This document shows positions 34,873-64,000 of a stretch of DNA of 64,000 nucleotides, piece after piece. Positions within the stretch are counted from its first letter, which is position 1, and every line of letters begins with the position of its first letter. The position numbers were made by a program, and so were the translations under genes. Source of the DNA: Xestospongia muta (lineage: Eukaryota; Porifera; Demospongiae; Haplosclerida; Petrosiidae); contig OY848919.1 of the NCBI GenBank assembly GCA_963693285.1, positions 10,907,461-10,971,460 on the forward strand, read 5' to 3'. Under the pieces are notes generated by a model. That model saw only the letters and a list, made by a program, of their open reading frames with translations, was not told where the DNA came from and searched no databases.

Positions 34873-36876
34873 TTATAAGACATCTACTTGACTGTCAATG
34901 CTCTTTGGATCATGAAGCTCAATAAGTTTAACAATATGTTTTGGTAAATCTATAGAAACATATGGTATACCCTCAGACACAATTGTCCTAGCAGCATGAC
35001 AAGAGAGTGGTAGAGGTCCAGTAGACAAGAGAAGTGAGCAAATAGGACTATCACTAGAGCAATAGTCTATAGGAGTTTTACCATGTGCATCTACAGCATC
35101 AACGTGTGCTCCATATGAAAGTAAAACTGATATTACTTCAACTGAACATTGTTCACCTTTAATTGCAGCATGGAGAAGCGTTTCACAATCACTGGGAGTG
35201 TTAATCACAGATTGAGCACCTACATCGAAAAAAGTACTTAAAAAGTATACATTGGCTTTGCTGTCACACTTTCTCTTTAAAATTTGATGCAGAAAAGATA
35301 CAAGTTCTCCCCTTTTCTCAAGCAATAAACAAAGAAATTGTTTTAAAAATTTATTATAGTCATGAATTGATGCTACAGAAAAAGCCAGGTTATCAATGAG
35401 ATGCCGAGAGATCCAACAATAAAAAATCTCTACTATTATTAACTTCTCTGTAAGTACATCATCCCTTTTTGCAATTCTCTCATAAGCCATTAAACCAATG
35501 TTTATTATATCAACATAACCTGAAGATGGAAACGAAGATTGTACAGTAGTGATCACATTAAAGAGAGTAAAAAGAATTCTCCTACTCTTCGAGTGAATAT
35601 CAATATTTTGGTGTGAGCAAGATTTGATAACATCGAGAGCCTTCATAGCTTTGTAGCATAGCCTGATCACTTTCATTTCTTCACCAAATGATAATAAATG
35701 TTCTGCCAATTCTAGGATATGATAAAGTAAAGAATCGTACTGGACACCCAAACAACGTTCCATTACAATAAGTTTTTGGTACTTATAGCCAATTTTAGCA
35801 TAGTCATCAGTATCCCACGCTGAATTCAATTCTTCCATACTCGATATTTCCAACCTATTTTCATACTCAGATATTGGTTCTAAATACAAAGGCTTTACAC
35901 AGTGCTCCTTATAGCACGATAAACCCTTCTCCCAAAATACCCTATTGTCTTTATCATTCAAGTTGGCCAGCAGAAGATACGCGTCACCTTTAGCAAGTGG
36001 AGGGCAACTAGTTTGTTCAGTTAATAACTGTACCACATCCAAGTGTCTGTTCACTGCAGCAAGATATAGAGGACAGGGTACATAATCCTCACTAGTAGAG
36101 TTGTATGGGGCAGCCGAGAGAGGAGACATACCATAAGCTAACAACACATTTATGATATCAACCCGTCCATATCGAGCTGCTTCGTGCATCACAGTGTAAC
36201 CTTCTTTTGTTGTTTGATGAATATTGGCACCTTTTGACGTAAGAAATGTTACAATTTCATAGACAATATCAAAGTCTTTGTCGTCTCCTTGAGCTACCTT
36301 TGGTAATTTGATGCCTGGTATATCTAGTCCACACATCATCATTAATGGAGTACATCCTCTGTAATTAGTTGTATTAACATCCACACCACTATCTAGAAGA
36401 TACTTCATCACAGATATACACCCATACTGTGCTGCTACATGAAGAGGACCACCCCAATATGGTGCCTGCTTGTTAAGATCAGCTCCTTTAGACACTAGAT
36501 ACTGAACCATCTCTACATTATCCTGAGTACAAGCTGCTACTAATGGTGGTACGAATTTGTGATGAAAACTTTTAGTAGATGTAATTGAACACTTGTTGAA
36601 TGGTTCAACCATAAATGTAGCCTTTTCGTTTACATCAATAAGGTTACCATAAGTGTCTAAGAGGTATTTCATTACATTAACATCACCATTAATTGCTGCA
36701 TCAACAACAGGAGACCAAGCAAAGACAGAAGGATCAGGAAAAAAAATTCGAGGACTTAGTGGCTTGTGATCACGAGAAAGTTTATCAAAAAAATCTCGGA
36801 CTTCATCTAGAGACTGCTTTCGGCATAGCTGTAGCAATTTATAATATTGAGAAGTTTTCAATTGAACTTCCTCCAT
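34873..36876 (-). CDS. FEM1-like ankyrin-repeat protein, second intact copy
   Basis: Intronless 667-aa frame, paralogous along its length to the gene at 5587. The blocks PPLVAACTQDNVE and GGPLHVAAQYGCISVM are nearly identical in both. Ankyrin repeats cover about residues 45-290. The FEM1-type middle has a YLLLAN segment, a PISEYENR segment and MERCLGVQ, and a second ankyrin pair lies near 565-615. The C-terminal VHL box is intact (622-655): LSCHAARTIV as BC-box and IDLPKHIVKLIELH as Cul2 box. Predicted role: substrate receptor for a CUL2-elongin BC ubiquitin ligase. The N-terminal 90 residues differ most from the paralogue, and that is where substrate choice could diverge. Divergent from ZNFX1, with starts 528 bp apart. 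Confidence 0.82.
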   Translation of the reverse strand: MEEVQLKTSQYYKLLQLCRKQSLDEVRDFFDKLSRDHKPLSPRIFFPDPSVFAWSPVVDAAINGDVNVMKYLLDTYGNLIDVNEKATFMVEPFNKCSITSTKSFHHKFVPPLVAACTQDNVEMVQYLVSKGADLNKQAPYWGGPLHVAAQYGCISVMKYLLDSGVDVNTTNYRGCTPLMMMCGLDIPGIKLPKVAQGDDKDFDIVYEIVTFLTSKGANIHQTTKEGYTVMHEAARYGRVDIINVLLAYGMSPLSAAPYNSTSEDYVPCPLYLAAVNRHLDVVQLLTEQTSCPPLAKGDAYLLLANLNDKDNRVFWEKGLSCYKEHCVKPLYLEPISEYENRLEISSMEELNSAWDTDDYAKIGYKYQKLIVMERCLGVQYDSLLYHILELAEHLLSFGEEMKVIRLCYKAMKALDVIKSCSHQNIDIHSKSRRILFTLFNVITTVQSSFPSSGYVDIINIGLMAYERIAKRDDVLTEKLIIVEIFYCWISRHLIDNLAFSVASIHDYNKFLKQFLCLLLEKRGELVSFLHQILKRKCDSKANVYFLSTFFDVGAQSVINTPSDCETLLHAAIKGEQCSVEVISVLLSYGAHVDAVDAHGKTPIDYCSSDSPICSLLLSTGPLPLSCHAARTIVSEGIPYVSIDLPKHIVKLIELHDPKSIDSQVDVL

Positions 36877-37404: not shown

Positions 37405-40400
37405 ATGGCAAGCAGAAGGGATAACTCACGAAGGGTATCTGACAACATCGGATCAGAACATGATACTTATGACTTATATCACGCTGGTTATCAAAGACAT
37501 AGAGGAGGTTATTTTGGAAGGGATGGTAGAAGACCTACTAGAAAACGTAGGAGTGAATCTCTTGATTGGAGAAGAAAAGAAGACCAAGAAAAACACACAT
37601 TAGTGTTTTCTGGAGAGCAGAGTAACACAATGGAGCCTGTTAATTGGAGAAGGAATGACGATGAACAAGATTATGCAACAGGAACTACTAGAGAACAAAT
37701 TAGTTCAAATAGTGAGTCTCCCTACAGGAGAAGGAGTAGCAATAAACAAGAACATACATTGCCTGAACAAACAGCACAGCATCAACTTGATAGTCAAGTG
37801 AGACACCAGAGAACCAGAGAAAAATATGGTCGCCATAGTCTAAGCACTCTTGAAAAAGATCCACATTTTTCAAATACCCAAGATAAAGTTGCTAGTGGGA
37901 ACAGTCGTCTTAGATCTAGAATGAATATCAAAGGACAAGACAGGAGAGGCAGACCCGGTCATAGAAGTAGTGATGAATCAGGACAGGGTCACAAAACAAT
38001 TCAAGGTGATAGTGTAGATACTGAAGAAAGAAATCAACGCAAACCTACTCATTTTCACAGACTTGAAATACGTGACTTTGTTAATCTATCTAAAGCAATA
38101 CCAGCAGATGTAGTTATGAAGCTTTATGCTGATTTAAAGGGCTTTCAGCAATCATTAAATAGTTGTAGCAAAGTGGTTAATCCTACCACAAAGCTTCACT
38201 ATACACTAGCTGTAATCCGTGTTCTTTTAAAAGTAAGTATAGCACACCAAACTGAACGTGATTCCCCAGCTTATTCGATATTTGCTGAATTTTTAAGTGA
38301 AAGATGCGCCGAATTTCATATGCTTCTGAAAGAGTATATAACTGTTCTTTCTCTTGATGATAAAGACCCAAGTGGCAACTTCAAAAAGATTCACTCTTTA
38401 TTTTCTCATTTAATGACATGTCTTCCTTCTTCTTCGTGGTGTACCCTGCCAATTGATGACTTAGTTGAGGCATTGCAGTATCATAATTTCGATGGTAAAC
38501 TTTGTTCTGACATCTTATTGCTTAAAACCCAACGTGATGACATAAGAAGTCAGTATACCAAGACTAAGGAAGACACTGACTCTACAGATGACTGTGATTA
38601 TTCTGAGTATCGACATTTACCTATTTTACCAGCTATGGATGAAATTTGCATCAGCACTCCTCCACAATTAAGATCCAATATAATCCATGGAGCCTATACG
38701 GGATGGGAACACTATTATGACACTCATTTTCGCCTTTTGCGTGAAGATTTCATAGCACCTCTACGAAGAGGAGTATCAGAATTTCGTCAAGTGCAAAGAA
38801 CTAAGCATTTTTTGGATGTCAATGTGTATACAGGTGTACAATTACTAGAGCCTGAATTTACTTATGATGGTTTGTGCTACAGAGTATCATTTGACACAAG
38901 TCGTTTTAGACAGCGTCGAAGTTGGGCTCATTCAAAAAGACTGATTTTTGGTTCATTACTTTGTTTTACTCCACAATATGACCAATTCAACGAGGAATCA
39001 TATTTTGCGTCTGTCATCCAAAGAGATCCTGAAAAACTCAAAAAAGGGATTTTTCACGTCCAATTTGAGGATGGGCTTCAGCTATTTCATCACCTTAACA
39101 AAACTGTGTTTGTTGCTATTGAGTCTAAAGCATACTTTGAGGCAAGTCGCCACATTCTACGAAGTTTGCAAACAGCAGAAGTTGACACAATGCCTTTCAA
39201 AAAATATTTAATAGAAAACAACCCTACACCAGTTCAGCAACCACAATATTTACAGGGAATAAGTCCAGTTTATGACCTCCGCTGGTTATACCCATCTGAC
39301 AACATATGTTCACAAAGAAAACCTATTTATATAGATGATCTTCTTGCAGAGATGAGTAAATTCGAAATTGACATCACAGACGACTATCAATGGCCCAATA
39401 CAGATGAAGTGGAGTTAGATGAGTCACAAGTTACTGCAATTAAAATGGCTCTAACTCAAGAAATTGCTGTCATTCAAGGACCTCCTGGTACTGGTAAAAC
39501 GTACATTGGATACAAAATTGTCCAGACCCTCCTTCAAAATCGAAAATTATGGGATCCTAACTTAGCTTCCCCCATTCTTGTGATGTGCTACACAAATCAT
39601 GCTCTTGATCAATTTCTGGAGGGGATTATACATCATCGTATTATGGAAGATTCTCACCGAATTCCAAAAATTGTACGAGTGGGAAGCAGAAGTCAAAGTG
39701 AAGAAATACAACAGTACAGCCTTCACAATGTAAGAAAAGAATTAGTTCCTAGTCACAGGTTGTTTCATCTCTACGAATGCAAAGAAGACATTGATGAAGC
39801 AGCTAAGTCCATACCATGGAAGAGCCTCCAGATCATGATGCAAGATCCTGTTAATGAGAATATTGTAAGCCCCAATGGACTGCTTCTGTTACGGCCCTTC
39901 ATTAATCCTTCACATTTTTACCAGCTGCTTGAGTTAGTTGATGATAAAAAATTGAAATTGTACTCTCTAGCTATATGGTTGGGTCTATGGGAGAAAGAAG
40001 ACAGCCAGTCTACTACTACTGATGATGCAGAAAGAACATATAACAATTTAAAACCTGAAGATAATGCAGAACAGCTTCAGGAATTAGAAGCCACTGAAGT
40101 TAATGACCAAGAGTTTGTAGATGTCATTGGTGAAGCAGAACATGAAGAGGCTGCTAGAAAACTTGATGATGGTAGTCACCACCGGATAGAAACAGCTGGA
40201 ATACTTCACCAAGAAATGTATACTGATCCTTTGGCTGAATATATAATGGCAGCTCAGCAAGACAAAAAGTCGGAAGAACAATGTGATCAGTTGCCAGATG
40301 ATATCAATACACCGAAATATAAGATGAAAAACCAGCTGGAAGTCAAAAAGTTATTAAATCAAATTCGACATTGTGAACCTCTCGAGCCAGAGCTTGAAGT

Positions 40401-43400
40401 AACCATTGATGACATTAATGAATTAGAAATACAGGATCGCTGGAAGCTTTTTAAACTATGGATCTACAAATATCAGATGTTCCTGAACAACAAGAGTCAT
40501 GTGCAACTTGGACATTACATTAATGCATGCCATGAGTACAAGAGAATACAACAGGAACTTGATCGCATTGCACTTGAGAAAGTAGAAGTCATTGGAATGA
40601 CAACCACTGGTGCAGCTAAGTACCAACACATCCTCCATCTTGTCAAACCAAAAATCGTCATTGTAGAGGAAGCTGCTGAAGTGTTAGAATCTCATATTGT
40701 GTCTGCACTTAATGCTGGGACTCAACATCTAATTCTTATTGGAGATCACAAGCAGTTACGACCAAAACCAAATGAATATGATTTGGCCAAAAAGCATCAT
40801 TTAGATATATCGCTGTTTGAAAGACTTATTCGTAATGGTCTTCCTCATGCTACTCTTCTCATACAACATCGTATGAGACCTCAAATAGCTAATCTTGTTT
40901 GTCCATTCGTTTACAGTAAGCTAGTGAATCATGAATCTGTTCTGAATTATGACAATATCAGAGGATTTGAAAAGAACATGTTCTTCTTTCAACATGATCA
41001 TCCTGAAGAAGAAGATGAACATTTAATGAGTCATTCAAATGAGTATGAAGCTATATTTGTGGTTGCACTTTGCAGACATCTTTTGAAACAAAACTACGAA
41101 CCATCACAAATTACTATTCTTACTGCTTACACAGGGCAATTGCTTAAAGTTAGAGCTCTGATGCCAAAGGATGCTTTTGACGGAGTTCATGTGGTGAATG
41201 TAGATAATTTTCAAGGAGAAGAAAATGACATAATTATACTCTCATTGGTAAGAAGCAATGCCTTTGACAATGTCGGATTTCTTAGAGATGAGAATCGTGT
41301 CTGTGTTGCGTTATCTCGTGCCAAAATGGGTTTTTATTGCTTTGGAAATTTTGAAATGTTAAGAAGAGTTGTTCCATTATGGCAAGTGATACTTTCACAT
41401 ATCGAAAAAGAAAGCTGCCTTGGAAGATCTTTCAAGCTTTACTGTCATAATCACGTAGAAAAGAAACTTGAAGTTAAAGAACCAGCTGACTTTTCAAAGT
41501 TTTGTCCAGAGGGTGGTTGTACTGAACAATGTCAGTATCGTCTTGATTGTGGCCATCAATGTAGGCGTTCCTGTCATTTAGTTGATCCTGATCACAAGGA
41601 GTATTATTGTAAGCAGCCTTGTTCAAAATATTGTCTAAACACTGAGCATCCTTGTGCAGGTTTTTGCTTTGAACCATGTCCACCATGTCAAGCTTTAGTA
41701 GTAAGGGTTATTCCATCATGTGGGCATGAGCAAATTATGTACTGTCATGAAAACCCACATGAAGTCCTTTGCATAAGTCCATGTCCAGAGTATTGTTTAA
41801 ATGGTCTTCACAATTGTCCATTAAAATGTTGGGAACCATGCAACCAATGCACAATTCTAGTAAAACGAAAGATGCCTAATTGTGTCCATGAGCAAGAAAT
41901 GGAATGCTATAAGAAGCCAGAGCATGAGAAGTGTTTGCATCCATGTGCCAAGACTTGTCCTGGTGGCCATGCTTGTCCTAGGTTGTGTTGGGAGGACTGT
42001 GGTCAATGTGAAGTCATTATGGAGAAACAAATGCCATTTTGCAAACACATTCAGAGGATGCCATGTTATATGAATCCCATAGACTTCAAGTGTCAACGAA
42101 TGTGTAGTAAAGTATATGACTGTCGACATCCCTGTCCAAAGAAATGCCATGAGACTTGTGATGTCTTTTGCTTGAAGCAAGTCGAAAAGCTTATACCAAA
42201 TTGTGGGCATTTGCAGACAATGCCTTGTCATATTGATCCGGAGAGATGGAAATGTGGCAGACCTTGTCAACGATGGCTGGATTGTGGTCACAATTGCAAA
42301 CAACTCTGTGGTGAACAATGTTTGTCATCTCTTTGTCAAGAGCCTGTTTATGTGACTTTAAGTTGCCAACATAAGGTCACAGTTGAGTGCAACAATTTTG
42401 CTAAAATGTCCACTCTTGTACTTGAACCATGTCGTCAACGATGTCTTAAGTTATTACCATGTGGCCATAATTGTAAGAATATTTGCAATGAGCCCTGTAC
42501 CAGTAAGTGTGAAGCCAAAGTCCAATATATTTGCCCTAAAGGGCATAAACAACCACTCTATTGTTATGAAACACAAGATCCTGAGGAAAATTGTGCAGTT
42601 AAATGTACTATAAGTGTATCTAAGAATTGCCAATGTGGTCATAAACACAAAATGAGATGTTGTGATTCTTTTGACCAATGTAGCTGTCCCGAAAAGTGCC
42701 CAGTCATACTCAAATGTGGTCACAAATGCTCGGGCAAATGTGGAGATTGTTTTCGAACTCGAATTCATCCACTTTGTATCTATGATGTCCAAATAAATAG
42801 AGTATGTGGCCATTTTGGCAGCGCACAATGCATGGGCATATATGACCAGTGTAAAAAACCTTGTCAGTTAGCCATTTGTCCTCATGTTAAGGAAACATGT
42901 ACTCATAAATGTGGAGAAATGTGCCCTGCAAAATGTTTTGAACCTTGCATTTCCGCCTGTCCACATGGTAAATGTACTAAGAGATGTAATGAAGTGTGCA
43001 ATTGGTCTCCGTGTGGAAAACCCTGTACAAAGGTGCTTAAATGTCGACATTATTGTCCTGGTCTCTGTGGTGAGAAGTGCCTATCTATCTGCATGAATTG
43101 TAGCCCTAAGAAGTTTCGAGACAGTGTGAAAGGGCTTGGGAAAAAGGCAAAATTAGAAGGTCATCGTTACATAGAGCTGCAATGTGGTCACATATTTACA
43201 ATTGAATACTTAGACAAATTTATCAAATCTGAGTCAGCTGCTGATCACAGAATTACTCCTCTCTATTGTCCAGCATGCTCTAAACCAATGATTTCTTCAT
43301 ATTATTGGAAAACTATTCAAGAACGATTGCATGATATTACTGAAATCCAGCGTTTTACCAGTAGAGCTACTGGATACTACAACATTTCTTCTCATATGAA

Positions 43401-44022
43401 ACTTACTGTCATGAGTATTATACAAGGTATTCCACAAAGAAAATTACCACTTCGAAGTATACAATTTGAGAAGACTGAGGAAACAATGTGTGGTATGAAG
43501 CTTATACAACAAGCTGATGTTTTATCTGTCCAAGAGCAAAGGTCTCAGTATGAATTACTTAAACCATTTCAAGCTCGTGATTTACTGAAAACAATAGTGT
43601 CTATTCTTGTAAGCAAGAAATTTAAATTATCATCACAACTTTTTACTGATATTCAAAGTGAACTGTATCGCATAAATCTTATAATGCTCTTAGAAAAAGT
43701 TTCGTATATCACTACTGATCAACTAAAAGGAAGGCTTGGACCTGTCAAAAGTGCTCTTCATCAAATGCAAGAAGATCCTCGTCTTCGTCTCACTGAATCA
43801 AAGTATGATGAATACCTAACTATCCTTCAATATACGTTTGAACAAGAAACTGGAACAGCTCTTGAAAATATTGTATCATTAGATATCAATCTACCAGAAA
43901 TGACTAAAGGAGAATGGTATAAATGTAGACGTGCTGGCCACTTTTACTTTGTCCCTTCCAAATATCGCAATAAAAAGGAAACTTTACTGTTACAATGTTC
44001 TGAATGTTTAAAGACAAAATAA
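37405..44022 (+). CDS. ZNFX1: NFX1-type zinc finger helicase ZNFX1 orthologue
   Basis: Single-exon frame of 2205 aa. Residues 1-220 are Arg/Ser/Gln-rich and disordered, followed by a helical region (about 225-400). An SF1 UPF1-like helicase core follows: Walker A GPPGTGKT at 692-699, VEEAAEV at 1087-1093, GDHKQLRPK next, VDNFQGEENDIIILSLVRSN from 1266, then VALSRAK. A long insert between Walker A and motif II is acidic. Residues 1367-1900 form a Cys/His-rich array of NFX1-type fingers (repeated C..GH.C...C.E.C). The C-terminus has C2174, H2179, C2198 and C2201, resembling an RZ-type finger. In vertebrates ZNFX1 senses viral dsRNA; in nematodes it supports small-RNA inheritance. Lack of introns contrasts with neighbouring spliced genes. 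The ATG at 37405 has no closer in-frame alternative upstream. Confidence 0.95.
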   Translation: MASRRDNSRRVSDNIGSEHDTYDLYHAGYQRHRGGYFGRDGRRPTRKRRSESLDWRRKEDQEKHTLVFSGEQSNTMEPVNWRRNDDEQDYATGTTREQISSNSESPYRRRSSNKQEHTLPEQTAQHQLDSQVRHQRTREKYGRHSLSTLEKDPHFSNTQDKVASGNSRLRSRMNIKGQDRRGRPGHRSSDESGQGHKTIQGDSVDTEERNQRKPTHFHRLEIRDFVNLSKAIPADVVMKLYADLKGFQQSLNSCSKVVNPTTKLHYTLAVIRVLLKVSIAHQTERDSPAYSIFAEFLSERCAEFHMLLKEYITVLSLDDKDPSGNFKKIHSLFSHLMTCLPSSSWCTLPIDDLVEALQYHNFDGKLCSDILLLKTQRDDIRSQYTKTKEDTDSTDDCDYSEYRHLPILPAMDEICISTPPQLRSNIIHGAYTGWEHYYDTHFRLLREDFIAPLRRGVSEFRQVQRTKHFLDVNVYTGVQLLEPEFTYDGLCYRVSFDTSRFRQRRSWAHSKRLIFGSLLCFTPQYDQFNEESYFASVIQRDPEKLKKGIFHVQFEDGLQLFHHLNKTVFVAIESKAYFEASRHILRSLQTAEVDTMPFKKYLIENNPTPVQQPQYLQGISPVYDLRWLYPSDNICSQRKPIYIDDLLAEMSKFEIDITDDYQWPNTDEVELDESQVTAIKMALTQEIAVIQGPPGTGKTYIGYKIVQTLLQNRKLWDPNLASPILVMCYTNHALDQFLEGIIHHRIMEDSHRIPKIVRVGSRSQSEEIQQYSLHNVRKELVPSHRLFHLYECKEDIDEAAKSIPWKSLQIMMQDPVNENIVSPNGLLLLRPFINPSHFYQLLELVDDKKLKLYSLAIWLGLWEKEDSQSTTTDDAERTYNNLKPEDNAEQLQELEATEVNDQEFVDVIGEAEHEEAARKLDDGSHHRIETAGILHQEMYTDPLAEYIMAAQQDKKSEEQCDQLPDDINTPKYKMKNQLEVKKLLNQIRHCEPLEPELEVTIDDINELEIQDRWKLFKLWIYKYQMFLNNKSHVQLGHYINACHEYKRIQQELDRIALEKVEVIGMTTTGAAKYQHILHLVKPKIVIVEEAAEVLESHIVSALNAGTQHLILIGDHKQLRPKPNEYDLAKKHHLDISLFERLIRNGLPHATLLIQHRMRPQIANLVCPFVYSKLVNHESVLNYDNIRGFEKNMFFFQHDHPEEEDEHLMSHSNEYEAIFVVALCRHLLKQNYEPSQITILTAYTGQLLKVRALMPKDAFDGVHVVNVDNFQGEENDIIILSLVRSNAFDNVGFLRDENRVCVALSRAKMGFYCFGNFEMLRRVVPLWQVILSHIEKESCLGRSFKLYCHNHVEKKLEVKEPADFSKFCPEGGCTEQCQYRLDCGHQCRRSCHLVDPDHKEYYCKQPCSKYCLNTEHPCAGFCFEPCPPCQALVVRVIPSCGHEQIMYCHENPHEVLCISPCPEYCLNGLHNCPLKCWEPCNQCTILVKRKMPNCVHEQEMECYKKPEHEKCLHPCAKTCPGGHACPRLCWEDCGQCEVIMEKQMPFCKHIQRMPCYMNPIDFKCQRMCSKVYDCRHPCPKKCHETCDVFCLKQVEKLIPNCGHLQTMPCHIDPERWKCGRPCQRWLDCGHNCKQLCGEQCLSSLCQEPVYVTLSCQHKVTVECNNFAKMSTLVLEPCRQRCLKLLPCGHNCKNICNEPCTSKCEAKVQYICPKGHKQPLYCYETQDPEENCAVKCTISVSKNCQCGHKHKMRCCDSFDQCSCPEKCPVILKCGHKCSGKCGDCFRTRIHPLCIYDVQINRVCGHFGSAQCMGIYDQCKKPCQLAICPHVKETCTHKCGEMCPAKCFEPCISACPHGKCTKRCNEVCNWSPCGKPCTKVLKCRHYCPGLCGEKCLSICMNCSPKKFRDSVKGLGKKAKLEGHRYIELQCGHIFTIEYLDKFIKSESAADHRITPLYCPACSKPMISSYYWKTIQERLHDITEIQRFTSRATGYYNISSHMKLTVMSIIQGIPQRKLPLRSIQFEKTEETMCGMKLIQQADVLSVQEQRSQYELLKPFQARDLLKTIVSILVSKKFKLSSQLFTDIQSELYRINLIMLLEKVSYITTDQLKGRLGPVKSALHQMQEDPRLRLTESKYDEYLTILQYTFEQETGTALENIVSLDINLPEMTKGEWYKCRRAGHFYFVPSKYRNKKETLLLQCSECLKTK

Positions 44023-52366: not shown

Positions 52367-52464
52367 ATATAGTACAAACACTTGAATTACCTAAAATCTA
52401 GTCACTTATAACTTAGATTAATAAGGAGTATCATTACTGTGCTTGTTGTGTTTTTACAGCAACA
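52367..52464. repeat. 5' flank shared with the giant ankyrin gene (copy 1)
   Basis: Similar to 54974-55091: both have CAACA.ACTATAT.., TAG..TCTAGTCA, CACTTA.A..TTA and TATCATTACT..., then TTGTTGTG/TTGTTATG with TTTTTACAG just before the ATG. TTTTTACAG ending at 52459 looks like a 3' splice site, so a 5' UTR intron may exist. The similarity shows that the duplication included the promoter. Confidence 0.6.
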
Positions 52465-53975
52465 ATGTCAACAATGGAGTCATATTTAGTAACTGAACTT
52501 TGTACCGCTTGTACTAGAGGTGATCTGGATAATGTCATAAGACTTATTAAACTAGGAGCTTCTCCTTGGCTACGTGATGATCAAGGGAACACTTTATTTC
52601 ACTTGTGCTGTAATTTTGTTCAATGTGGGTTAGAGTTATTAGAGTACCTTATTAGTGTCTCTGGTATTGTGAATTGTGACTCCTTAGTTAATAATGAAGG
52701 CTCAACTCTGCTTCATTTAGCATGTTTTTCTTCTGGTAATGTAGAGTTAGTGAGGTATCTAGTCGAAGAAGTAGGTTGTGACATTAATGCTAAGGAAAAC
52801 AATGACCACACTTCCCTCCACATTGCTTGTGAGAAGAATCAATTAGAAATTGTCAAGTTTCTGACTTCTAAACCTAAATGTAATCGAGAATCTGTAAGCA
52901 AACTTGGTAATAAACCACTCCATTTAGCCTGTGGTTTATCTGGCAATGTAGAGTTAGTAAGGTTTCTAGTCGAAGAAGCAGGTTGTGACATTAATACTAA
53001 GGAAACAATGACTCCACTTCCCTCCACATTGCTTGTCAGAAGGATGAATTAGAAATTGTCAAGTTTCTGACTTCTAAACCTGAATGTAATCATGAAGCTG
53101 GCAACAAAGATGGTGACAGACCATTTCATATAGCTTGTTTATCTACTGGCAATGTAGAGTTAGTGAGATATCTAGTCGATGAAGCAGGTTGTGACATTAA
53201 TGCTAAGAGAAATAATGACTCCACTCCCCTCCACTTGGCTTGCAGCAAAAATCAATTAGTAAAGTTCCTGACTTCTAAACCTGAATGTAATCATGAAGCT
53301 GGCAACAAAGATGGTGACAGACCACTTCATATAGCTTGTTTATCTACTGGCAATGTAGAGTTAGTGAGATATCTAGTCGATGAAGCAGGTTGTGGCATTA
53401 ATGCTAAGGGGAATAATGACTCCACTCCCCTCCACTTGGCTTGCAGCAAAAATCAATTAGAAATTGTGAAGTTTCTGACTTCTAAACCTGAAAGTAATTA
53501 CGAAGCTGTCGACAAAAATGGTGACAGACCACTTCATATAGCTTGTTTACCTACTGACAATGTAGACTTAGTTAGATATCTAGTTGAAGAAGCAGGTTGT
53601 GACATTAATTCTAAAACAGTCAATCGCAAATTTCCTCTACAGATTGCCCTTGATATGAAGAACTTTAATCTTGTCAAATATTTAACTGCTCGTCCTGAAT
53701 GTCATACTGTAGATCTTATCTGTAATGATAATAGATTACAAAGATTAGTTGATCATCACAACAAGTTCCAACTAGCAATAAAAAGTACTGGAGTAACTTA
53801 TTTACGAGTTGTTAAATGTATCTTAACAGGACCACCAGGTACTGGTAAGAGTACCTTGAAAAAGAGGCTACTCAATGAGACTCTTGTGGAACCATCTCAT
53901 GGTACTGGTGTGGTTGATTTCAATCATTTGTTTGCCAGATCTTTGAAGTCTACTAATAACAAACGTATTGAATGA
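52465..53975 (+). pseudogene. Truncated ankyrin/P-loop paralogue of the giant gene
   Basis: The start MSTMESYLVTE matches the gene at 55092. Ankyrin units with the same 69-residue period follow. A single-base loss in the AAGGAAA.CAATGA context near 53003 shifts the frame and ends the first ORF at 53052; the second frame continues the repeats (53050-53975). A later unit also lacks two codons (NQLVKFL for NQLEIVKFL). After the repeats come CILTGPPGTGKSTLKKRLL, an intact Walker A, and GTGVVDFNHLFARS before a stop, so the rest of the GTPase, COR-like and C-terminal regions are missing. Only about four to five units are present, versus 23 in the neighbour. It might still yield a short ankyrin protein from the first ORF; the frameshift could also be an assembly error. 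Confidence 0.8.
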
Positions 53976-54973: not shown

Positions 54974-55091
54974 ACAACACACTATATCAACTGTACAGTA
55001 CCAGCAACGTGGTTGGCTAGAATCTAGTCAAATTATCACTTAGTTTATTGATGGATATCATTACTAGACTTGTTATGTTTTTACAGTAACC
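54974..55091. repeat. 5' flank shared with the truncated paralogue (copy 2)
   Basis: Counterpart of 52367-52464. It ends TTTTTACAGTAACC immediately before the ATG at 55092; the acceptor-like site ends at 55086. Confidence 0.6.
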
Positions 55092-58000
55092 ATGTCAACA
55101 ATGGAGTCATATTTAGTAACTGAATTTTGTACTGCTTGTACTAGAGGTGATCTGGATAATGTCAAGAGACTTATTGAACTAGGAGCTTCTCCTTGGATAC
55201 GTGATGATCAAGAGAACACTTTATTTCACTTGTGCTGTAGTTCTGTTCAATGTGGGTTAGAGGTTTTAGAGTACCTTATTAGTGTCTCTGGTATTGTTAA
55301 TTGTGGCTCCTTAGTTAATAATGAGGGCTCAACTCTGCTTCATTTAGCATGTATCAGTGGTAAACTTGAGTTTGTTCGATTGTTATTTGTTCAGCATCAA
55401 GATGGTTTCGAGTCATGTCATGACATACATGGACACACCCCTCTTTATTATGCTTGTATAAATCAACATCTAGACATTGTTTCATTTGTTTGTAGTCAAG
55501 ACACTGTACTATCTCCAGATGATATCTATCAGTGTGTGAAAGTTTCAAGTTGGGAAATAATGAGACTGTTACTTAAGAAAATATCTTTTAGAAATTTCAT
55601 GGACAGAGTAATTGAAGAGAATCACGTGGCCTTAGCTAATCTTGTAATCAAAGATAAAGTTGTACAGTTGCTTGATGTTACACCATTGTTTCCTTTACAT
55701 TACTCTGTTTCATTAGGTGATGTAAAGATTGTTAAATATCTCATTAATACCATTAAATATAATATAGAGAGCATAGACAATGATAGCAACAGACCACTTC
55801 ATATAGCATGTTCATCTTCTGGCAATGTAGAGTTAGTGAGGTATCTAGTGGAAGAAGCAGGTTGTGACATTAATGCTAAGGAAGAAAAGGACTCTATTTC
55901 CCTCCACATAGCTTGTGAGAAGAATCAATTGGAAATTGTCAAGTTTCTTACTTCTAAACCTGAATGTAATCGAGAATCTCCAGACAAATTCGATAATAGA
56001 CCACTTCACGTAGCATGTAGTTTGTCTGGCAATGTAGAGTTAGTGAAGTATTTAGTTGAAGAAGCAGGTTGTGACATTAATGCTAAGGGAAATAATGACT
56101 GCACTTCTCTCCACATAGCTTGTTTGAAGAATCAATTAGAAATTGTCAAGTTTCTTACTTCTAAACCTGAATGTAATAGAGAATCTCCAGACAAGTTCGA
56201 TTATAGACCACTTCACGTAGCATGTGATTTGTCTGGCAATGTAGAGTTAGTGAAGTATTTAGTTGAAGAAGCAGGTTGTGACATTAATGCTAAGGGACAA
56301 AATGAGTACACTTCCCTCCACATAGCTTGTGAGAAGAATCAATTAGAAATTGTCAAGTTTCTTACTTCTAAACCTGAATGTAATCGAGAATCTCCAAACA
56401 AATTCGATAATAGACCACTTCACGTAGCATGTGATTTGTCTGGCAATGTAGAGTTAGTGAGGTATTTAGTTGAAGAAGCAGGTTGTGACATTAATGCTAT
56501 GGGAAATAATGACTACACTTCTCTCCACATAGCTTGTTTGAAGAATCAATTAGAAATTGTCAAGTTTCTTACTTCTAAACCTGAATGTAATCGAGAATCT
56601 CCAAACAAGTTCGATAATAGACCACTTCACGTAGCATGTAGTTTGTCTGGCAATGTAGAGTTAGTGAGGTATCTAGTTGAAGAAGCAGGTTGTACCATTA
56701 ATGCTAAGGAACAAAATGAGTACACTTCCCTCCACATAGCTTGTGAGAAGAATCAATTAGAAATTGTCAAGTTTCTTACTTCTAAACCTGAATGTAATAG
56801 AGAATCTCCAAACAAGTTTGATAATAGACCACTTCACGTAGCATGTGATTTGTCTGGCAATGTAGAGTTAGTGAAGTATTTAGTTGAAGAAGCAGGTTGT
56901 GACATTAATGCTAAGGGAAATAATGACTGCACTTCTCTCCACATAGCTTGTTTGAAGAATCAATTAGAAATTGTCAAGTTTCTTACTTCTAAACCTGAAT
57001 GTAATCGAGAATCTCCAGACAAGTTTGATAATAGACCACTTGACGTAGCATGTGGTTTTTCTGGCAATGTAGAGTTAGTGAGGTATTTAGTTGAAGAAGC
57101 AGGTTGTACCATTAATGCTAAGGGACAAAATGAGTACACTTCCCTCCACATAGCTTGTGGGAAGAATCAATTAGAAATTGTCAAGTTTCTTACTTCTAAA
57201 CCTGAATGTAATCGAGAATCTCCAAACAAGTTCGATAATAGACCACTTCACATAGCATGTGATTTGTCTGGCAATGTAGAGTTAGTGAGGTATTTAGTTG
57301 AAGAAGCAGGTTGTACCATTAATGCTAAGGGACAAAATGAGTACACTTCCCTCCACATAGCTTGTGGGAAGAATCAATTAGAAATTGTCAAGTTTCTTAC
57401 TTCTAAACCTGAATGTAATCGAGAATCTCCAAACAAGTTCGATAATAGACCACTTCACATAGCATGTGATTTGTCTGGCAATGTAGAGTTAGTGAAGTAT
57501 TTAGTTGAAGAAGCAGGTTGTGACATTAATGCTAAGGGACAAAATGAGTACACTTCCCTCCACATAGCTTGTGGGAAGAATCAATTAGAAATTGTCAAGT
57601 TTCTTACTTCTAAACCTGAATGTAATAGAGAATCTCCAAACAAGTTCGTTAATAGACCACTTCACGTAGCATGTGATTTGTCTGGCAATGTAGAGTTAGT
57701 GAGGTATTTAGTTGAAGAAGCAGGTTGTGACATTAATGCTAAGGGAAATAATGACTGCACTTCTCTCCACATAGCTTGTGGGAAGAATCAATTAGAAATT
57801 GTCAAGTTTCTTACTTCTAAACCTGAATGTAATCGAGAATCTCCAAACAAGTTCGATTATAGACCACTTCACGTAACATGTGATTTGTCTGGCAATGTAG
57901 AGTTAGTGAAATATTTAGTTGAAGAAGCAGGTTGTGACATTAATGCTAAGGGACAAAATGAGTACACTTCCCTCCACATAGCTTGTTTGAAGAATCAATT

Positions 58001-61000
58001 GGAAATTGTCAAGTTTCTTACTTCTAAACCTGAATGTAATCGAGAATCTCCAGACAAGTTTGATAATAGACCACTTGACGTAGCATGTGGTTTTTCTGGC
58101 AATGTAGAGTTAGTGAGGTATTTAGTTGAAGAAGCAGGTTGTAACATTAATGCTAAGGGACAATATGAGTACACTTCCCTCCACATAGCTTGTGAGAAGA
58201 ATCAATTAGAAATTGTCAAGTTTCTTACTTCTAAACCTGAATGTAATCGAGAATCTCCAGACAAGTTCGATGATAGACCACTTCACATAGCCTGTAGTTT
58301 GTCTGGCAATGTAGAGTTAGTGAAGTATTTAGTTGAAGACGCAGGTTGTGACATTAATGCTAAGGGAAATAATGACTACACTTCCCTCCATATAGCTTGT
58401 GAGAAGAATCAATTAGAAATTGTCAAGTTTCTTACTTCTAAACCTGAATGTAATCGAGAATCTCCAAACAAGTTCGATGATAGACCACTTCACGTAGCAT
58501 GTGATTTGTCTGGCAATGTAGAGCTAGTGAAGTATTTAGTAGAAGAAGCAGGTTGTGACATTAATGCTAAGGAACAAAATGAGTACACTTCCCTCCACAT
58601 AGCTTGTGAGAAGAATCAATTAGAAATTGTCAAGTTTCTTACTTCTAAACCTGAATGTAATCGAGAATCTCCAAACAAGTTCGTTAATAGACCACTTCAC
58701 GTAGCATGTGGTTTGTCTGGCAATGTAGAGTTAGTGAGGTATTTAGTTGAAGAAGCAGGTTGTGACATTAATGCTAAGGGACAAAATGAGTACACTTCCC
58801 TCCACATAGCTTGTGAGAAGAATCAATTAGAAATTGTCAAGTTTCTTACTTCTAAACCTGAATGTAATCGAGAATCTCCAAACAAGTTCGTTAATAGACC
58901 ACTTCACGTAGCATGTGGTTTGTCTGGCAATGTAGAGTTAGTGAGGTATTTAGTTGAAGAAGCAGGTTGTGACATTAATGCTAAGGGACAAAATGAGTAC
59001 ACTTCCCTCCACATAGCTTGTGGGAAGAATCAATTAGAAATTGTCAAGTTTCTTACTTCTAAACCTGAATGTAATCGAGAATCTCCAGACAAGTTCGATA
59101 ATAGACCACTTCACGTAGCATGTGATTTGTCTGGCAATGTAGAGTTAGTGAGGTATTTAGTTGAAGAAGCAGGTTGTGACATTAATGCTAAGGGAAATAA
59201 TGACTGCACTTCTCTCCACATAGCTGGTTTGAAGAATCAATTGGAAATTGTCAAGTTTCTTACTTCTAAACCTGAATGTAATCAAGAATGTCCAGACAAG
59301 TTCGATTATAGACCACTTCGCGTAGCATGTGGTTTGTCTGGCAATGTAGAGTTTGTGAGGTATTTAGTTGAAGAAGCAGGTTGTGACATTAATGCTAAGG
59401 GACAAATTGAGTACACTTCCCTCCACATAGCTTGTGGGAAGAATCAATTGGAAATTGTCAAGTTTCTTACTTCTAAACCTGAATGTAATCGAGAATCTCC
59501 AGACAAGTTCGATAATAGACCACTTCACGTAGCATGTGGTTTTTCTGGCAATGTAGAGTTAGTGAGGTATTTAGTTGAAGAAGCAGGTTGTAACATTAAT
59601 GCTAAGGGACAATATGAGTACACTTCCCTCCACATAGCTTGTGAGGAGAATCAATTAGAAATTGTCAAGTTTCTTACTTCTAAACCTGAATGTAATCGAG
59701 AATCTCCAAACAAGTTTGATAATAGACCACTTCACGTAGCATGTGATTTGTCTGGCAATATAGAGTTAGTGAAGTATTTAGTTGAAGAAGCAGGTTGTGA
59801 CATTAATGCTAAGGGACAAAATGAGTACACTTCCCTCCACATAGCTTGTTTGAAGAATCAATTAGAAATTGTCAAGTTTCTTACTTCTAAACCTGAATGT
59901 AATCGAGAATCTCCAGACAAGTTCGATAATAGACCATTTCACGTAGCATGTAGTTTGTCTGGCAATGTAGAGTTAGTGAAGTATTTAGTTGAAGAAGCAG
60001 GTTGTGACATTAATGCTAAGGGACAAAATGAGTACACTTCCCTCCACATAGCTTGTGGGAAGAATCAATTAGAAATTGTCAAGTTTCTTACTTCTAAACC
60101 TGAATGTAATCGAGAATCTCCAGACAAGTTCGATAATAGACCATTTCACGTAGCATGTAGTTTGTCTGGCAATGTAGAGTTAGTGAAGTATTTAGTTGAA
60201 GAAGCAGGTTGTGACATTAATGCTAAGGGACAAAATGAGTCCACTTCCCTCCACATAGCTTGTGAGAAGAATCAATTGGAAATTGTCAAGTTTCTTACTT
60301 CTAAACCTGAATGTAATCGAGAATCTCCAAACAAGTTCGATAATAGACCACTTCACGTAGCATGTAGTTTGTCTGGCAATGTAGAGTTAGTGAAGTATTT
60401 AGTTGAAGAAGCAGGTTGTGACATTAATGCTAAGGGAAATAATGACTGCACTTCTCTCCACTTGGCTTGTGAGAAGAATCAATTAGAAATTGTCAAGTTT
60501 CTTACTTCTAAACCCGAATGTAATCGAGAATCTCCAGACAAGTTCGAATGTAGACCACTTCACATAGCATGTAGTTTGTCTGGTGATGTAGACTTAGTGA
60601 GGTATTTAGTCGAAGAAGCAGGTTGTGACATTAATGCTAAGGATCACTCAGATCGTTTTCCTTTACAAATTGCTTGTAATTTAAAGAACAAACCTCTGGT
60701 TAAATATTTTATTAGTCGTCCAGAATGTCAAACACTTGTGTCATTGATTGATACAAATTACGATGATGAATTACAAAGTTTGCTAGAGCACCACAAAAAA
60801 TTTCAACAAGCATTGAAAAGCAATGGAGGGATACGTCTATGTGCTGTAAAATGTATATTAACTGGACCACCAGGTGCTGGTAAAAGTACATTGAAGAAGA
60901 GGTTACTCAATGAGACTCTTTTAGAACCTTGTAACAGTACTGGTGTGGTAGATTCAGCCATACAAGTTAAATCATTTCGTAAACTGCAACAAGAAAATGC

Positions 61001-63069
61001 CATAGTCTCTGGACTAGAAGATAGTCTTTGCAAATGGAAAAAACATGAATTAGATGAAGAAGCTGTTTATCTTTTTGAAAAAGTATTAAGTAGTACTTTA
61101 TCAAAGCCTGTCTCTAGTGATATTAACATTTGCAACTCTTCAACTGTTAATTCTGAAAACATTGAAACACAAGATGACATTGTGACTTATATACACAATA
61201 ACAATGAAAGTAGTGACAGTAACTACATGACTTTAGACCTCGTTAATGAAAGGCCAGTTATACCTTCAAATGTAAAAGCTGTTCAAACTTTATCTGAAAC
61301 TGTACAAAGTACTTATGTTATTAACAGAGCAAAGTTGGAGGACACAGATACATCAGAACAGATCAATGAAAGTAGCCATGCTTTGTTGCACATCATTGAT
61401 ACTGGAGGACAACCTGAATTTCATGAGATCTTACCAGCACTTATTACTGGTCCAGCTATCAATTTACTTACCTTTAAACTTACAGATGACATAAGAAGTT
61501 GTTTCAAAATCACTTATAGATCAAGCAATGGTGATTTAGAACCTTATGAATCATCATTTATTCTTGAGGAAGCTATTTTTCGTTCGTTAGCCAGTATAGC
61601 TTGTTTAAGACAAAACACAATTGGATGGACATTTAATGAATTACCAGTTAAAGATGACTCAGAACCTGCTGCATTTCTCATTGCTACTCACAGAGATTGT
61701 GTTGATGAAAGTAAAGTGGCTGAAGTTAATGAACAACTTAAATTGAAGATTCGAAACAGTGTTGAACTATTTCATCAGAATCTGGTCCAATTTTCGAATA
61801 AAGAGCAGGTTATTTTTGCTCTTGATACAATTAGAGACCAAGAGAATATTGAACATTTACGAACAGCTTTACATAATGTCATGTTGACAAACTTTAATGA
61901 GTTACATATTCCAGTATCATGGTGTAGTTTTAATGTATTGTTACGAAAGAGTGAGAAGTCTATTTTCAGATTAGATGCTTGTTATAAGCTTGCTCAGAAG
62001 TGTGGTATATCTGGTAGAGATGAGTTCATGTCAGCATTGTGGTTTTTACATCACAGAGTGGGTAGCATCATGTATTACCCTGAGGTTATGGAATTAAAAG
62101 ACATAGTCATCACTGATCTTCAACTTGTTTTTGATCATGTCACCCGATTAATCACATCCAGCTTTACTTTCAGAGGAATACAAAGACCTGGTAGTGAAGA
62201 AAGGTTTCGTACTATAGGCCAATTCTCAGAGTCAACTCTAAGAAGGCTTTTTTTAAGAAATGATGATCTTCTGACTCCACTAAAACTTGTATCTCTACTA
62301 AAGCATCTTCATATTATAGCTGGTCCTATGAAAGGTCTTGAAAATGAGAAATATTACTTTTTGCCTTGTGCTCTTAAGCCTACTACCCTTGAACAAGAAC
62401 ATGAAGACCCCTCCTTGTTTCCTGCTCCATTGTTAATCTACTTTGAATGTGGTTACTGTCCTGTAGGTATGTTCTGTTGTTTAGTAGTTCATTTAATAAG
62501 CACAACACAGCAGTCAGAACTGAAATGGACATTAGATAAACCACCTCACTATCGCAACAGGATAACCTTCTTAGTTGGTAAATGTTATGACAAAATCACT
62601 CTTATTAGTCGAGCTACTTACTTTGAAATATTGATCAATCGTATACCCAAAATGAGTGAAATCTTACCTTTATCAAAACTCTGTTTAGCTGTGTATAAAA
62701 CTCTTAACAACAGTATACAAATGGTAACTGAATCTCTACATTATACAAACAAGATACTCCACTTTTTTGGTTTTGCCTGTACTATTTGTCAATGTTGTCG
62801 CTCTCATCCTGCAATATGTGAATATGATAATCCAGTAGCTGCTAAATGTGTCTATGGAAGAGATGTTTTACCTTTAATGGAGAAACATGCTATTTGGTTT
62901 GATAAGGTAGAGTTTATCTATTAAAGTATAATGTTTTAATTCATTGTTAGCAGGTTCCCATTATACCAGCTAAAGTACAATTTAGTTCAAATTCGTCTGA
63001 GTCTGTATCAGGTATGCATTAGACAATTTATATGTTAATAAGACTTCAGAACATACACAGTTATAGATG

Positions 63070-63108
<39 letters not shown>

Positions 63109-64000
63109 CTGCTACCAACATGAAGATATTTAAGATTGCATCAACATGAAATAGATTGCAATTTGACTCATGCTTACAGAAAATTGATCATAGTTTTTAA
63201 TAATTAATGAAGCTCTTTAATGTCTTCCTTAGAGTCTGGAATTGATCAGATTACTTCAATGGACTCTGTTGTGGCTAAAAGAGCTCTAGCTCAATGTACT
63301 GATGTTATTATTGAGTCAAGTATTGACTCATTCACTCTTGCAAGAAGACTTTATTCAAAGGAAGTCATTTCAGAGAGTATCTATAAGAAAGTAATAGATA
63401 TGGAAACTAGAGATACAAGTGAAGGCCGCCTTGAAAGGATTCTTGGACACTTAAGAGATCGTGTCAGACGTGATGCTAATATTTTGATATCTTTTCTCAA
63501 TATTTTAAAAGATTTGACTCATCAAGATTTAGCTGCTTTAATTGTCAAAAAATATAAAGGTATGTTGTATAGAATGTTATATTATATTTATTAGTGAATT
63601 TACTTTAGAATTACAAAGTGCTGCAGAGAAAGAGCATCTTACAGGAGACAGCACTCTACAAGATGTACTTGTTAAGAAAGTTAGGAAAAATAATAGAAGT
63701 ATTAATTTTTACTATTTGTTAGGATGATACCTCCTACCAACATAAATCAGAAGGACTTGGTAAGGGGTCACCAAAAACAAGACTACACAAATTGAAAAGG
63801 AGATCAAATGTAAGTATGTCTGTGTCATCACTCAAGAAACACTCAAAATCACCTGATGAACAAAAGAAAATGAAGAATGAAGAGAGTAAGTTAGAAGTTA
63901 CTTATCATATCTTATTTTATACTCGGTTATCACAGAAAAAAAGAAGACAGTAAAGAAACCGAAATTAATAGTTGTATATTCAGAACAATCACAGTCATCA
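55092..64000 (+). CDS. Giant ankyrin-Roc/COR-like GTPase with predicted death-fold domain (partial, runs off window)
   Basis: Predicted exons: 55092-62906, 62954-63011, 63233-63559, 63609-63679, 63723-63885 and 63936 onward, with no stop before the window end. Residues 1-232 are irregular ankyrin repeats; 233-1819 are 23 units of 69 residues (two ankyrins each); a final pair runs to about 1880. Next is a P-loop GTPase: GPPGAGKST at 1925-1933, an insert rich in Ser/Asn/Thr, IIDTGGQPEFHEILPALI (G3-like D2103) and ATHRD (G4-like, 2199-2202). A COR-like region follows (WFLHHRVGSIMYYP, then LKDIVITDLQLVFDHV). Exon 3 (about 109 aa) is helical with a DHLA-type LTHQDLAALIVKKYK end, resembling a CARD/death-fold domain. 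The tail is Lys/Ser-rich. An intracellular sensor or scaffold is a reasonable inference; the ligand is unknown. Confidence 0.88.
55788..60548 (+). repeat. 207-bp tandem array, 23 in-frame copies (ankyrin pairs)
   Basis: Each unit encodes NRPLHVACDLSGNVELV... then YTSLHIACEKNQLEIVKFL and SKPECNRESP.KFD. The distance between the first and last KPECN codons is exactly 22 x 207 bp, so there is not one indel across 4.76 kb. Variation is confined to a few positions: the residue pairs NND[CY] or Q[NY]EY, R/K before YLVEE, D/T/N after GC, C-E/G/L-KNQ, and [ND]/[DVY] in the linker. A diverged half-unit follows at 60549. Confidence 0.97.
63073..63106. repeat. (AT)n microsatellite in the intron before the death-fold exon
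   Basis: About 17 consecutive AT dinucleotides within the 221-bp intron 63012-63232. Confidence 0.95.

What the first reader, a model, noticed from the sequence alone, without database searches (positions are those of the whole stretch)
55788..60548. Twenty-three near-identical 207-bp ankyrin units with zero indels inside one exon
The array keeps exact register over 4.76 kb, and units differ only by reshuffled variants at the same few codons (linker KFDN/KFDY/KFVN/KFDD, NNDC/QNEY, E/G/L-KNQ). Such mosaic reuse of alleles points to ongoing gene conversion or unequal crossing-over, and variable residues lie on the ankyrin beta-turn and inner helix where ligands bind. A self-homogenising sensor array that can change length and combination would be an unusual invertebrate recognition system. 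Copy number, register and variants are seen directly; the recognition role is inferred.
Basis: partly seen in the sequence, partly recalled or inferred. Interest (0 to 1): 0.9.

Follow-up and report, generated by a model that had tools for sequence, protein, structure and literature searches.

The report
Homogenised ankyrin array in sponge ROCO
A gene in what is probably a sponge genome carries 23 nearly identical copies of a protein-binding module joined to a signalling GTPase and, in the next exons, what looks like a cell-death signalling domain; it resembles the fast-changing recognition proteins of fungi, but what it binds has not been shown.

Summary
Observation confirmed: 23 gapless 207-bp units (two ankyrin repeats each) fill 55791-60551 of one frame, 55092-62924. 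After the array comes a Roc-COR GTPase: all 29 PDB fold matches at E<=1e-3 are ROCO/LRRK proteins. In-frame splice signals lead to a helical exon, 63233-63559; a 50%-identical relative elsewhere in the genome passes the Pfam CARD cut-off, though the exon itself does not. At least 150 copies exist.

Homogenisation is supported: pS 0.059 within the array against 0.23-0.48 to units of five paralogues; block duplications in a paralogue; heads and tails reassorted. 71% of amino-acid differences fall on 16 of 69 codons at the canonical binding face, but such positions vary in ankyrins generally, and selection above neutrality was not shown. An identical gene copy 23 kb away is a recent duplication or an assembly error. 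Fungal NLR repeats evolve alike: a new animal variant of a known kind; a recognition role is likely but unproven.

The parts
55092..62924 (+). open reading frame, 2610 aa, carrying the ankyrin head, array and Roc-COR; the predicted gene leaves this frame at the splice donor after 62906
   Evidence: upstream in-frame stop at 55065; donor
55092..55790 (+). N-terminal ankyrin-like head (MSTMESYL...), shared by the cluster paralogues
55791..60551 (+). 23 gapless 207-bp units, each two ankyrin repeats
   Evidence: Pfam Ank_2 35 stretches in the protein
60552..60758 (+). degenerate 24th unit at the end of the array
60765..62906 (+). Roc-COR GTPase: GPPGAGKST, DTGGQ and THRD motifs (their GTPase names are recalled)
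   Evidence: Pfam Roc 23.1 bits (cut-off 27) and COR-A 28.3 bits (cut-off 35.3), both below cut-off; AlphaFold model pLDDT 75.6; fold search, 29 of 29 matches at E<=1e-3 are ROCO/LRRK proteins
62907..62953 (+). predicted intron, donor AAG|GTAGAG
   Evidence: GT at the same place in 7 of 7 cluster ORFs printed (6 AAG|GTAGA, 1 GAG|GTAAA)
62954..63011 (+). predicted 58-bp exon, in frame
63233..63559 (+). predicted exon encoding a CARD-like helical domain
   Evidence: AG before and GT after in 9 of 9 other copies printed
52417..53975 (+). broken upstream paralogue (head, about 4 units, start of Roc) in two overlapping open frames

Best explanation
The gene encodes an intracellular recognition protein: an ankyrin head and a long, nearly identical ankyrin array (sensor), a Roc-COR GTPase (switch) and a CARD-like domain in downstream exons (output to death-fold signalling). 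It belongs to a tandem cluster. [quoted passage not shown] Shown: array, Roc-COR fold, paralogue cluster, concerted evolution, concentration of amino-acid differences on the canonical binding face. Inferred: splicing to the CARD-like exon, ligand binding by the array, GTPase switching, immune or self/non-self role.
For: Array. Roc-COR. CARD-like exon: ten full-length places in the 254-kb cluster, the window's own included, and one more split in two pieces; splice signals conserved and in frame; the annotated Amphimedon relative P0048 also runs on some 400 residues past the conserved K-V; at least 150 genome copies; a copy 50% identical to the window exon over 102 aa (E 7e-34) scores 27.1 bits against Pfam CARD (cut-off 23.9); the first Foldseek hit is a chain of the CED-4/CED-3 holoenzyme and 7 of the next 9 are described as CARDs. 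Concerted evolution: pS 0.059 within the array, 0.230-0.477 to units of five paralogues; against the paralogue with the closest tail (231) the units differ by 0.282 and the tail by 0.155. 22 of 23 target units have their nearest unit in the same gene, the identical second copy being left out of that comparison. Unit turnover: six other arrays have from 4 to 34 units (degenerate last units left out), one with four pairs of exactly identical units in shifted blocks. Reassortment: paralogue 231 has a head 90-91% identical to 114, 205 and 155 but a tail 61-63% identical to theirs, while its tail is 87% identical to the target's. Variable face: 71% of nonsynonymous differences in 16 of 69 codons (permutation p 5e-5), or 54% in the 12 strict DARPin positions (p 0.00015); 42-60% and 39-52% in 6 of 6 other arrays. 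Published context: ankyrin, CARD and DEATH genes respond to microbial patterns in two sponges (PMC6208332 passages).
Against: No expression, splicing, binding or GTPase data. The window exon itself matches no Pfam family at E<=1; among its 26 relatives HSR (6 members, best E 0.015) and a viral glycoprotein model (5, best E 0.0091) match as weakly as CARD (8, best E 0.019). Its model is weak (pLDDT 68.9, pTM 0.47), 0 of 62 Foldseek matches reach E 0.001, and ribosomal proteins outscore CARDs in VIA-align. In the 16 face codons 27 of 31 counted changes are nonsynonymous against a neutral expectation of 0.843 (p 0.45); against the array-wide synonymous rate the excess is 1.7-fold, p 0.057; in the four larger paralogue arrays pN/pS there is 0.54-0.60, in the two small ones 0.77 and 1.18. 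The extended set of 16 codons was chosen after I had seen the units. For this array the local-incompatibility test was not significant (p 0.42) and neighbouring units are no more alike than random pairs (p 0.24). High internal identity also occurs in other ankyrin families of this genome.
Confidence: 0.55

Rival explanations
1. An ordinary ankyrin-ROCO scaffold. The array is homogenised by neutral unequal crossing-over, and the variable codons are simply the positions that ankyrins leave unconstrained.
For: N:S in face codons fits neutrality; positions 1, 3, 11, 12 and 33 (that paper's numbering) are among the most diverse in an alignment of 7,404 ankyrin repeats (PMC8415598 passages); the other codons of the unit are under purifying selection, 16 of 29 changes nonsynonymous, p 0.006; high-identity ankyrin arrays also occur in other families of this genome (8 of 8 loci checked, a biased sample in which two loci overlap).
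Against: A tandem cluster with head/tail reassortment and a CARD-like tail is, to my knowledge, more typical of receptor families than of a housekeeping scaffold.
Confidence: 0.3
2. A long elastic ankyrin solenoid with a mechanical or membrane-scaffold role, as in NOMPC or ankyrin-R.
For: Best PDB sequence matches of three units include Ankyrin-1/2 and NOMPC.
Against: No channel or spectrin-binding family among the 11 Pfam families of the ORF; the C-terminal part is Roc-COR. Those PDB matches reflect the shared repeat.
Confidence: 0.05
3. The unit number and the second gene copy are assembly artefacts.
For: A 13.7-kb stretch is identical, without one difference, between the two copies 23,371 bases apart; the repeat domains of het-d and het-e were recovered from long reads but not from Illumina assemblies (PMC12222747 abstract).
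Against: No two units of the array are identical, so it is not a simple stutter; the duplicated block has a differing upstream flank; paralogues have arrays of their own.
Confidence: 0.1

Closest known systems
Fungal NLR repeats with high internal conservation (ANK, TPR, WD; Podospora and others, PMC4986451)
   Same: Repeats over 85% identical over 100 aa, variation on the concave face (inner helix and beta-hairpin), differing repeat numbers between genes.
   Different: Fungal receptors use NACHT or NB-ARC; here a Roc-COR GTPase in a probable animal. Repeat-number polymorphism between individuals and positive selection were shown there and not here. That paper gives 0.8% for such repeats in metazoans (passages).
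het-d/het-e WD40 allorecognition genes of Podospora (PMC1805685)
   Same: Concerted evolution within and between family members, units tend to cluster by gene of origin, variable codons at the interaction surface (abstract and section 7).
   Different: WD40 beta-propellers and NACHT; recognition of HET-C variants is known there (PMC12222747 abstract), no ligand is known here.
Brown-algal LRR-ROCO genes (PMC11378527)
   Same: ROC-COR protein with a repeat sensor that is shuffled and proposed as an immune receptor (passages).
   Different: There each LRR is a separate exon with alternative splicing; here ankyrin units lie in one open frame and change by recombination in DNA.
Amphimedon queenslandica LOC109588965 (P0048)
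   Same: Ankyrin, Roc, COR and a C-terminal extension; 49% identity over 95% of the C-terminal query.
   Different: Only 1 full match to the unit profile and autocorrelation 0.10, so no homogenised array.

Membership tests
ROCO (Roc-COR) proteins | Roc GTPase followed by COR | tested here: met
   29 of 29 fold matches at E<=1e-3 are ROCO/LRRK. By Pfam the window protein itself is below both curated cut-offs; relatives P0048, P0060, P0061 and P0062 pass COR-A, none of the four passes Roc.
CARD domain | Pfam CARD match over cut-off and death fold | tested here: inconclusive
   Window exon: no family at E<=1; 8 of 27 aligned members match CARD weakly, best E 0.019; relative L048 passes, 27.1 against 23.9 bits; model weak.
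NLR / STAND receptors | NACHT or NB-ARC domain | tested here: not met
   No NACHT or NB-ARC among the 11 Pfam families of the ORF at E<=0.001; the nucleotide-binding part folds as Roc-COR.
Repeat sensors with high internal conservation (fungal type) | at least 85% identity between repeats over 100 aa | tested here: met
   0.99 at lag 69
Repeat sensors with high internal conservation (fungal type) | variable sites on the concave binding face | tested here: met
   16 of 69 codons hold 71% of nonsynonymous differences; mapped by repeat numbering, not on a model; the DARPin numbering used to choose codons is recalled, the concave-face definition was seen
Repeat sensors with high internal conservation (fungal type) | positive diversifying selection | tested here: inconclusive
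   Frequency-weighted pN/pS 1.81 in face codons, but the event count fits neutrality, p 0.45
Repeat sensors with high internal conservation (fungal type) | repeat-number polymorphism between individuals | not testable with these tools
   only one assembly of the array was available
Brown-algal LRR-ROCO | one LRR per exon | tested here: not met
   ankyrin units, all in one open frame

The most novel reading that the evidence does not exclude
A sponge self/non-self or symbiont-recognition system: a cluster of ankyrin-ROCO genes whose sensor arrays rewrite themselves by recombination, exchange heads and tails, and signal through a CARD-like module shared by at least 150 loci, evolved in parallel with fungal incompatibility receptors but on a different GTPase.
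Probability: 0.3. Interest if true: 0.85.

Novelty: new variant of a known kind. Interest (0 to 1): 0.62.

Why it matters
Sponges discriminate self from non-self with remarkable specificity (PMC5450542, start of abstract in the listing) and many live with dense microbial communities, yet the receptors responsible are, to my knowledge, poorly known. If these arrays are sensors, they would be an animal counterpart of the fungal repeat receptors and give a concrete locus to test: unit order should differ between individuals and predict graft or microbe responses. They also suggest that gene models in such genomes can lose the signalling exon.

Tried and rejected
NLR membership: rejected, no NACHT/NB-ARC. 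A Death-like reading of the last 95 residues of Amphimedon P0048: by eye only; Pfam lists no Death family for P0048 at E<=1, and tblastn of that piece found nothing convincing in the cluster (best E 1.6). PDB sequence search of the exon alone and as a profile: 2 and 7 matches, none of them a CARD and none below E 0.05. NCBIfam scan of the exon family: 13 unrelated weak families. Allele comparison: P0001 and P0014 are 100% identical to genes of this genome, so the protein database holds the same species, but no second version of the target array was listed (one search listed 120 of 481); P0005 matches at most 86%. In one search the head of gene 138 was not found (its start reads MESHL) and its tail rows are unreliable (region cut wrongly), so its tails are left out of the pS argument; its unit rows are kept; one search gives its tail identities. 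A control on other ankyrin loci first failed by its search expression and was replaced. Searches for prior reports; in the titles and abstract starts listed I saw nothing describing this family. The library lacks most subscription journals, and I did not open most listed papers.
Full report
What is there. The window lies at C3:10907461-10971460 of a 158-Mb, 28-contig genome without a name. The only protein with a species name among the 64 found with the C-terminal part is Amphimedon queenslandica LOC109588965, at 49% identity, so I take the host to be a sponge other than Amphimedon queenslandica; this is inference. ORF 55092-62924 encodes 2610 aa. Its array has 23 gapless 207-bp units at 55791-60551, found independently by TRF with 0% indels. 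Every unit is a pair of ankyrin repeats.

The 719 residues after the array fold as Roc-COR: AlphaFold model with mean pLDDT 75.6 and pTM 0.81 from 46 sequences; all 29 PDB matches with E<=1e-3 are LRRK1, LRRK2 or microbial Roco proteins. Pfam alone was weak, both Roc and COR-A below cut-off. The ORF end is probably not the gene end. Many homologues share a K-V at the same place near their end, which in the DNA is a splice donor (AAG|GTAGAG after 62906), and the annotated Amphimedon protein runs on some 400 residues past it. A 58-bp exon (62954-63011) and a 327-bp exon (63233-63559) follow in frame. The latter is found at ten full-length places in the 254 kb, the window's own included, and once split in two pieces; each of the nine other copies printed has AG before and GT after it. 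No transcript data were available, so splicing is predicted.

The family. Within 254 kb seven further open frames with at least four units lie in the same orientation, besides broken copies. The C-terminal part has homologues on C3, C15, C8, C10 and C13 (85 matching stretches, often more than one per gene). Of 64 database proteins found with the C-terminal part, 46 have at least 85% internal identity over 100 aa, against 20 of the 91 listed only in the search with the N-terminal part, which showed 120 of 481. Other ankyrin families of this genome, with 33-aa units, show it as well: 8 of 8 loci, two of which overlap, chosen as best matches to the ankyrin model and so biased. The property is thus not unique to this gene.

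How the array evolves. Mean pS between units is 0.059 within the array, but 0.230-0.477 to units of five other genes; paralogue 231, whose tail is closest (pS 0.155), has units at 0.282. 22 of 23 units have their nearest relative in the same gene (identical second copy left out); on a tree of 118 units from 7 genes, gene labels change 35 times against a mean of 72 in 1000 shuffles, minimum 64. In paralogue 114, units 3, 4, 7 and 21 recur exactly as 8, 9, 11 and 29, and units 17-22 resemble 25-30 with 0-3 differences: block duplication. In the target, 47% of informative site pairs are incompatible with one tree and linkage falls with distance (r -0.275, p 0.002), but the local-incompatibility test is not significant (p 0.42) and neighbours are no more alike than random pairs (p 0.24). 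Paralogue 231 has the head of the 114/205/155 group (90-91% identity) and a tail close to the target (87%, against 61-63% to that group): heads and tails have reassorted.

Where it varies. I chose codons from the DARPin randomised positions (numbering recalled; a paper confirmed only that randomised positions form the paratope, passages). These 12 of 69 codons hold 54% of nonsynonymous pairwise differences (permutation p 0.00015). With neighbouring beta-turn codons, added after I had seen the units, 16 codons hold 71% (p 5e-5); pN is 0.160 there and 0.022 elsewhere. Counted as events, synonymous changes per codon are equal in the two classes (0.25), nonsynonymous ones 1.69 against 0.30 (Fisher p 0.009). 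Against diversifying selection: the 27 nonsynonymous and 4 synonymous events in face codons fit neutrality (p 0.45); compared with the array-wide synonymous rate the excess is 1.7-fold, p 0.057; in the four larger paralogue arrays pN/pS in these codons is 0.54-0.60, in the two small ones 0.77 and 1.18; and positions on this face are among the most variable in ankyrins generally (PMC8415598 passages; matching the two numberings is mine). Relaxed constraint therefore explains the data about as well as diversifying selection.

The second copy. The whole gene recurs 23,371 bases downstream; 8052 bases around the array have no mismatch and the identical stretch runs 13.7 kb, with a differing flank upstream and few differences downstream. 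It may be a very recent duplication, gene conversion or an assembly error. The equal unit number there says nothing about stability.

Comparison. Fungal NLRs with ANK, TPR or WD repeats show the same syndrome: high internal conservation, repeat-number polymorphism, positive selection at concave-face sites; the authors report 0.8% such repeats in metazoans (PMC4986451, passages). het-d/het-e WD40 units evolve in concert within and between loci (PMC1805685, abstract and one section). Brown-algal LRR-ROCO genes are proposed immune receptors with shuffled repeats (PMC11378527 passages). The present case combines a ROCO switch, ankyrin arrays and a CARD-like tail in a probable sponge. Eight paper searches (sponge, ankyrin, ROCO, immune and allorecognition terms; one on tandem ankyrin duplication) showed no report of it in the titles and abstract starts listed; in one sponge NLR paper the words ankyrin and Roc do not occur and COR occurs once, in a legend (PMC12909245, word counts and passages).

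Verdict. A real, interesting array; the mechanism of homogenisation is well supported; the architecture suggests a receptor; recognition function and diversifying selection remain unproven.

Noticed in passing
window 37405-44019 (+): A 2205-aa ZNFX1-like helicase ORF (Pfam ZNFX1 3.3e-27, AAA_11/AAA_12); parts of this stretch recur at 95-97% identity elsewhere in the receptor cluster.
   Followed up: partly
window 52417-53975 (+): A broken upstream paralogue with its own short 207-bp array; a longer, also broken version lies before the second gene copy.
   Followed up: partly
G000, at least 150 places; window 63233-63559: The CARD-like exon family is far larger than the 15 loci that the Pfam CARD model finds, and lies on many contigs; which genes carry the others was not examined.
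   Followed up: partly
L001-L008 (C14 and C3:2.6 Mb): Other ankyrin families with 33-aa units also show near-identical internal repeats, 0.87-1.0 over 100 aa.
   Followed up: no
window 63723-64000 and beyond its end: Further short open stretches after the CARD-like exon are rich in basic runs, KRQR-like beyond the window; possible nuclear-localisation linkers.
   Followed up: no
window 5587-7500 (+) and 34876-36876 (-): Two ankyrin ORFs that share long identical stretches by eye, one with a weak ANK_LRRK2 match.
   Followed up: no
C3:11145147-11145896 (L046): Paralogue 231 is followed by two CARD-like exons in a row.
   Followed up: no
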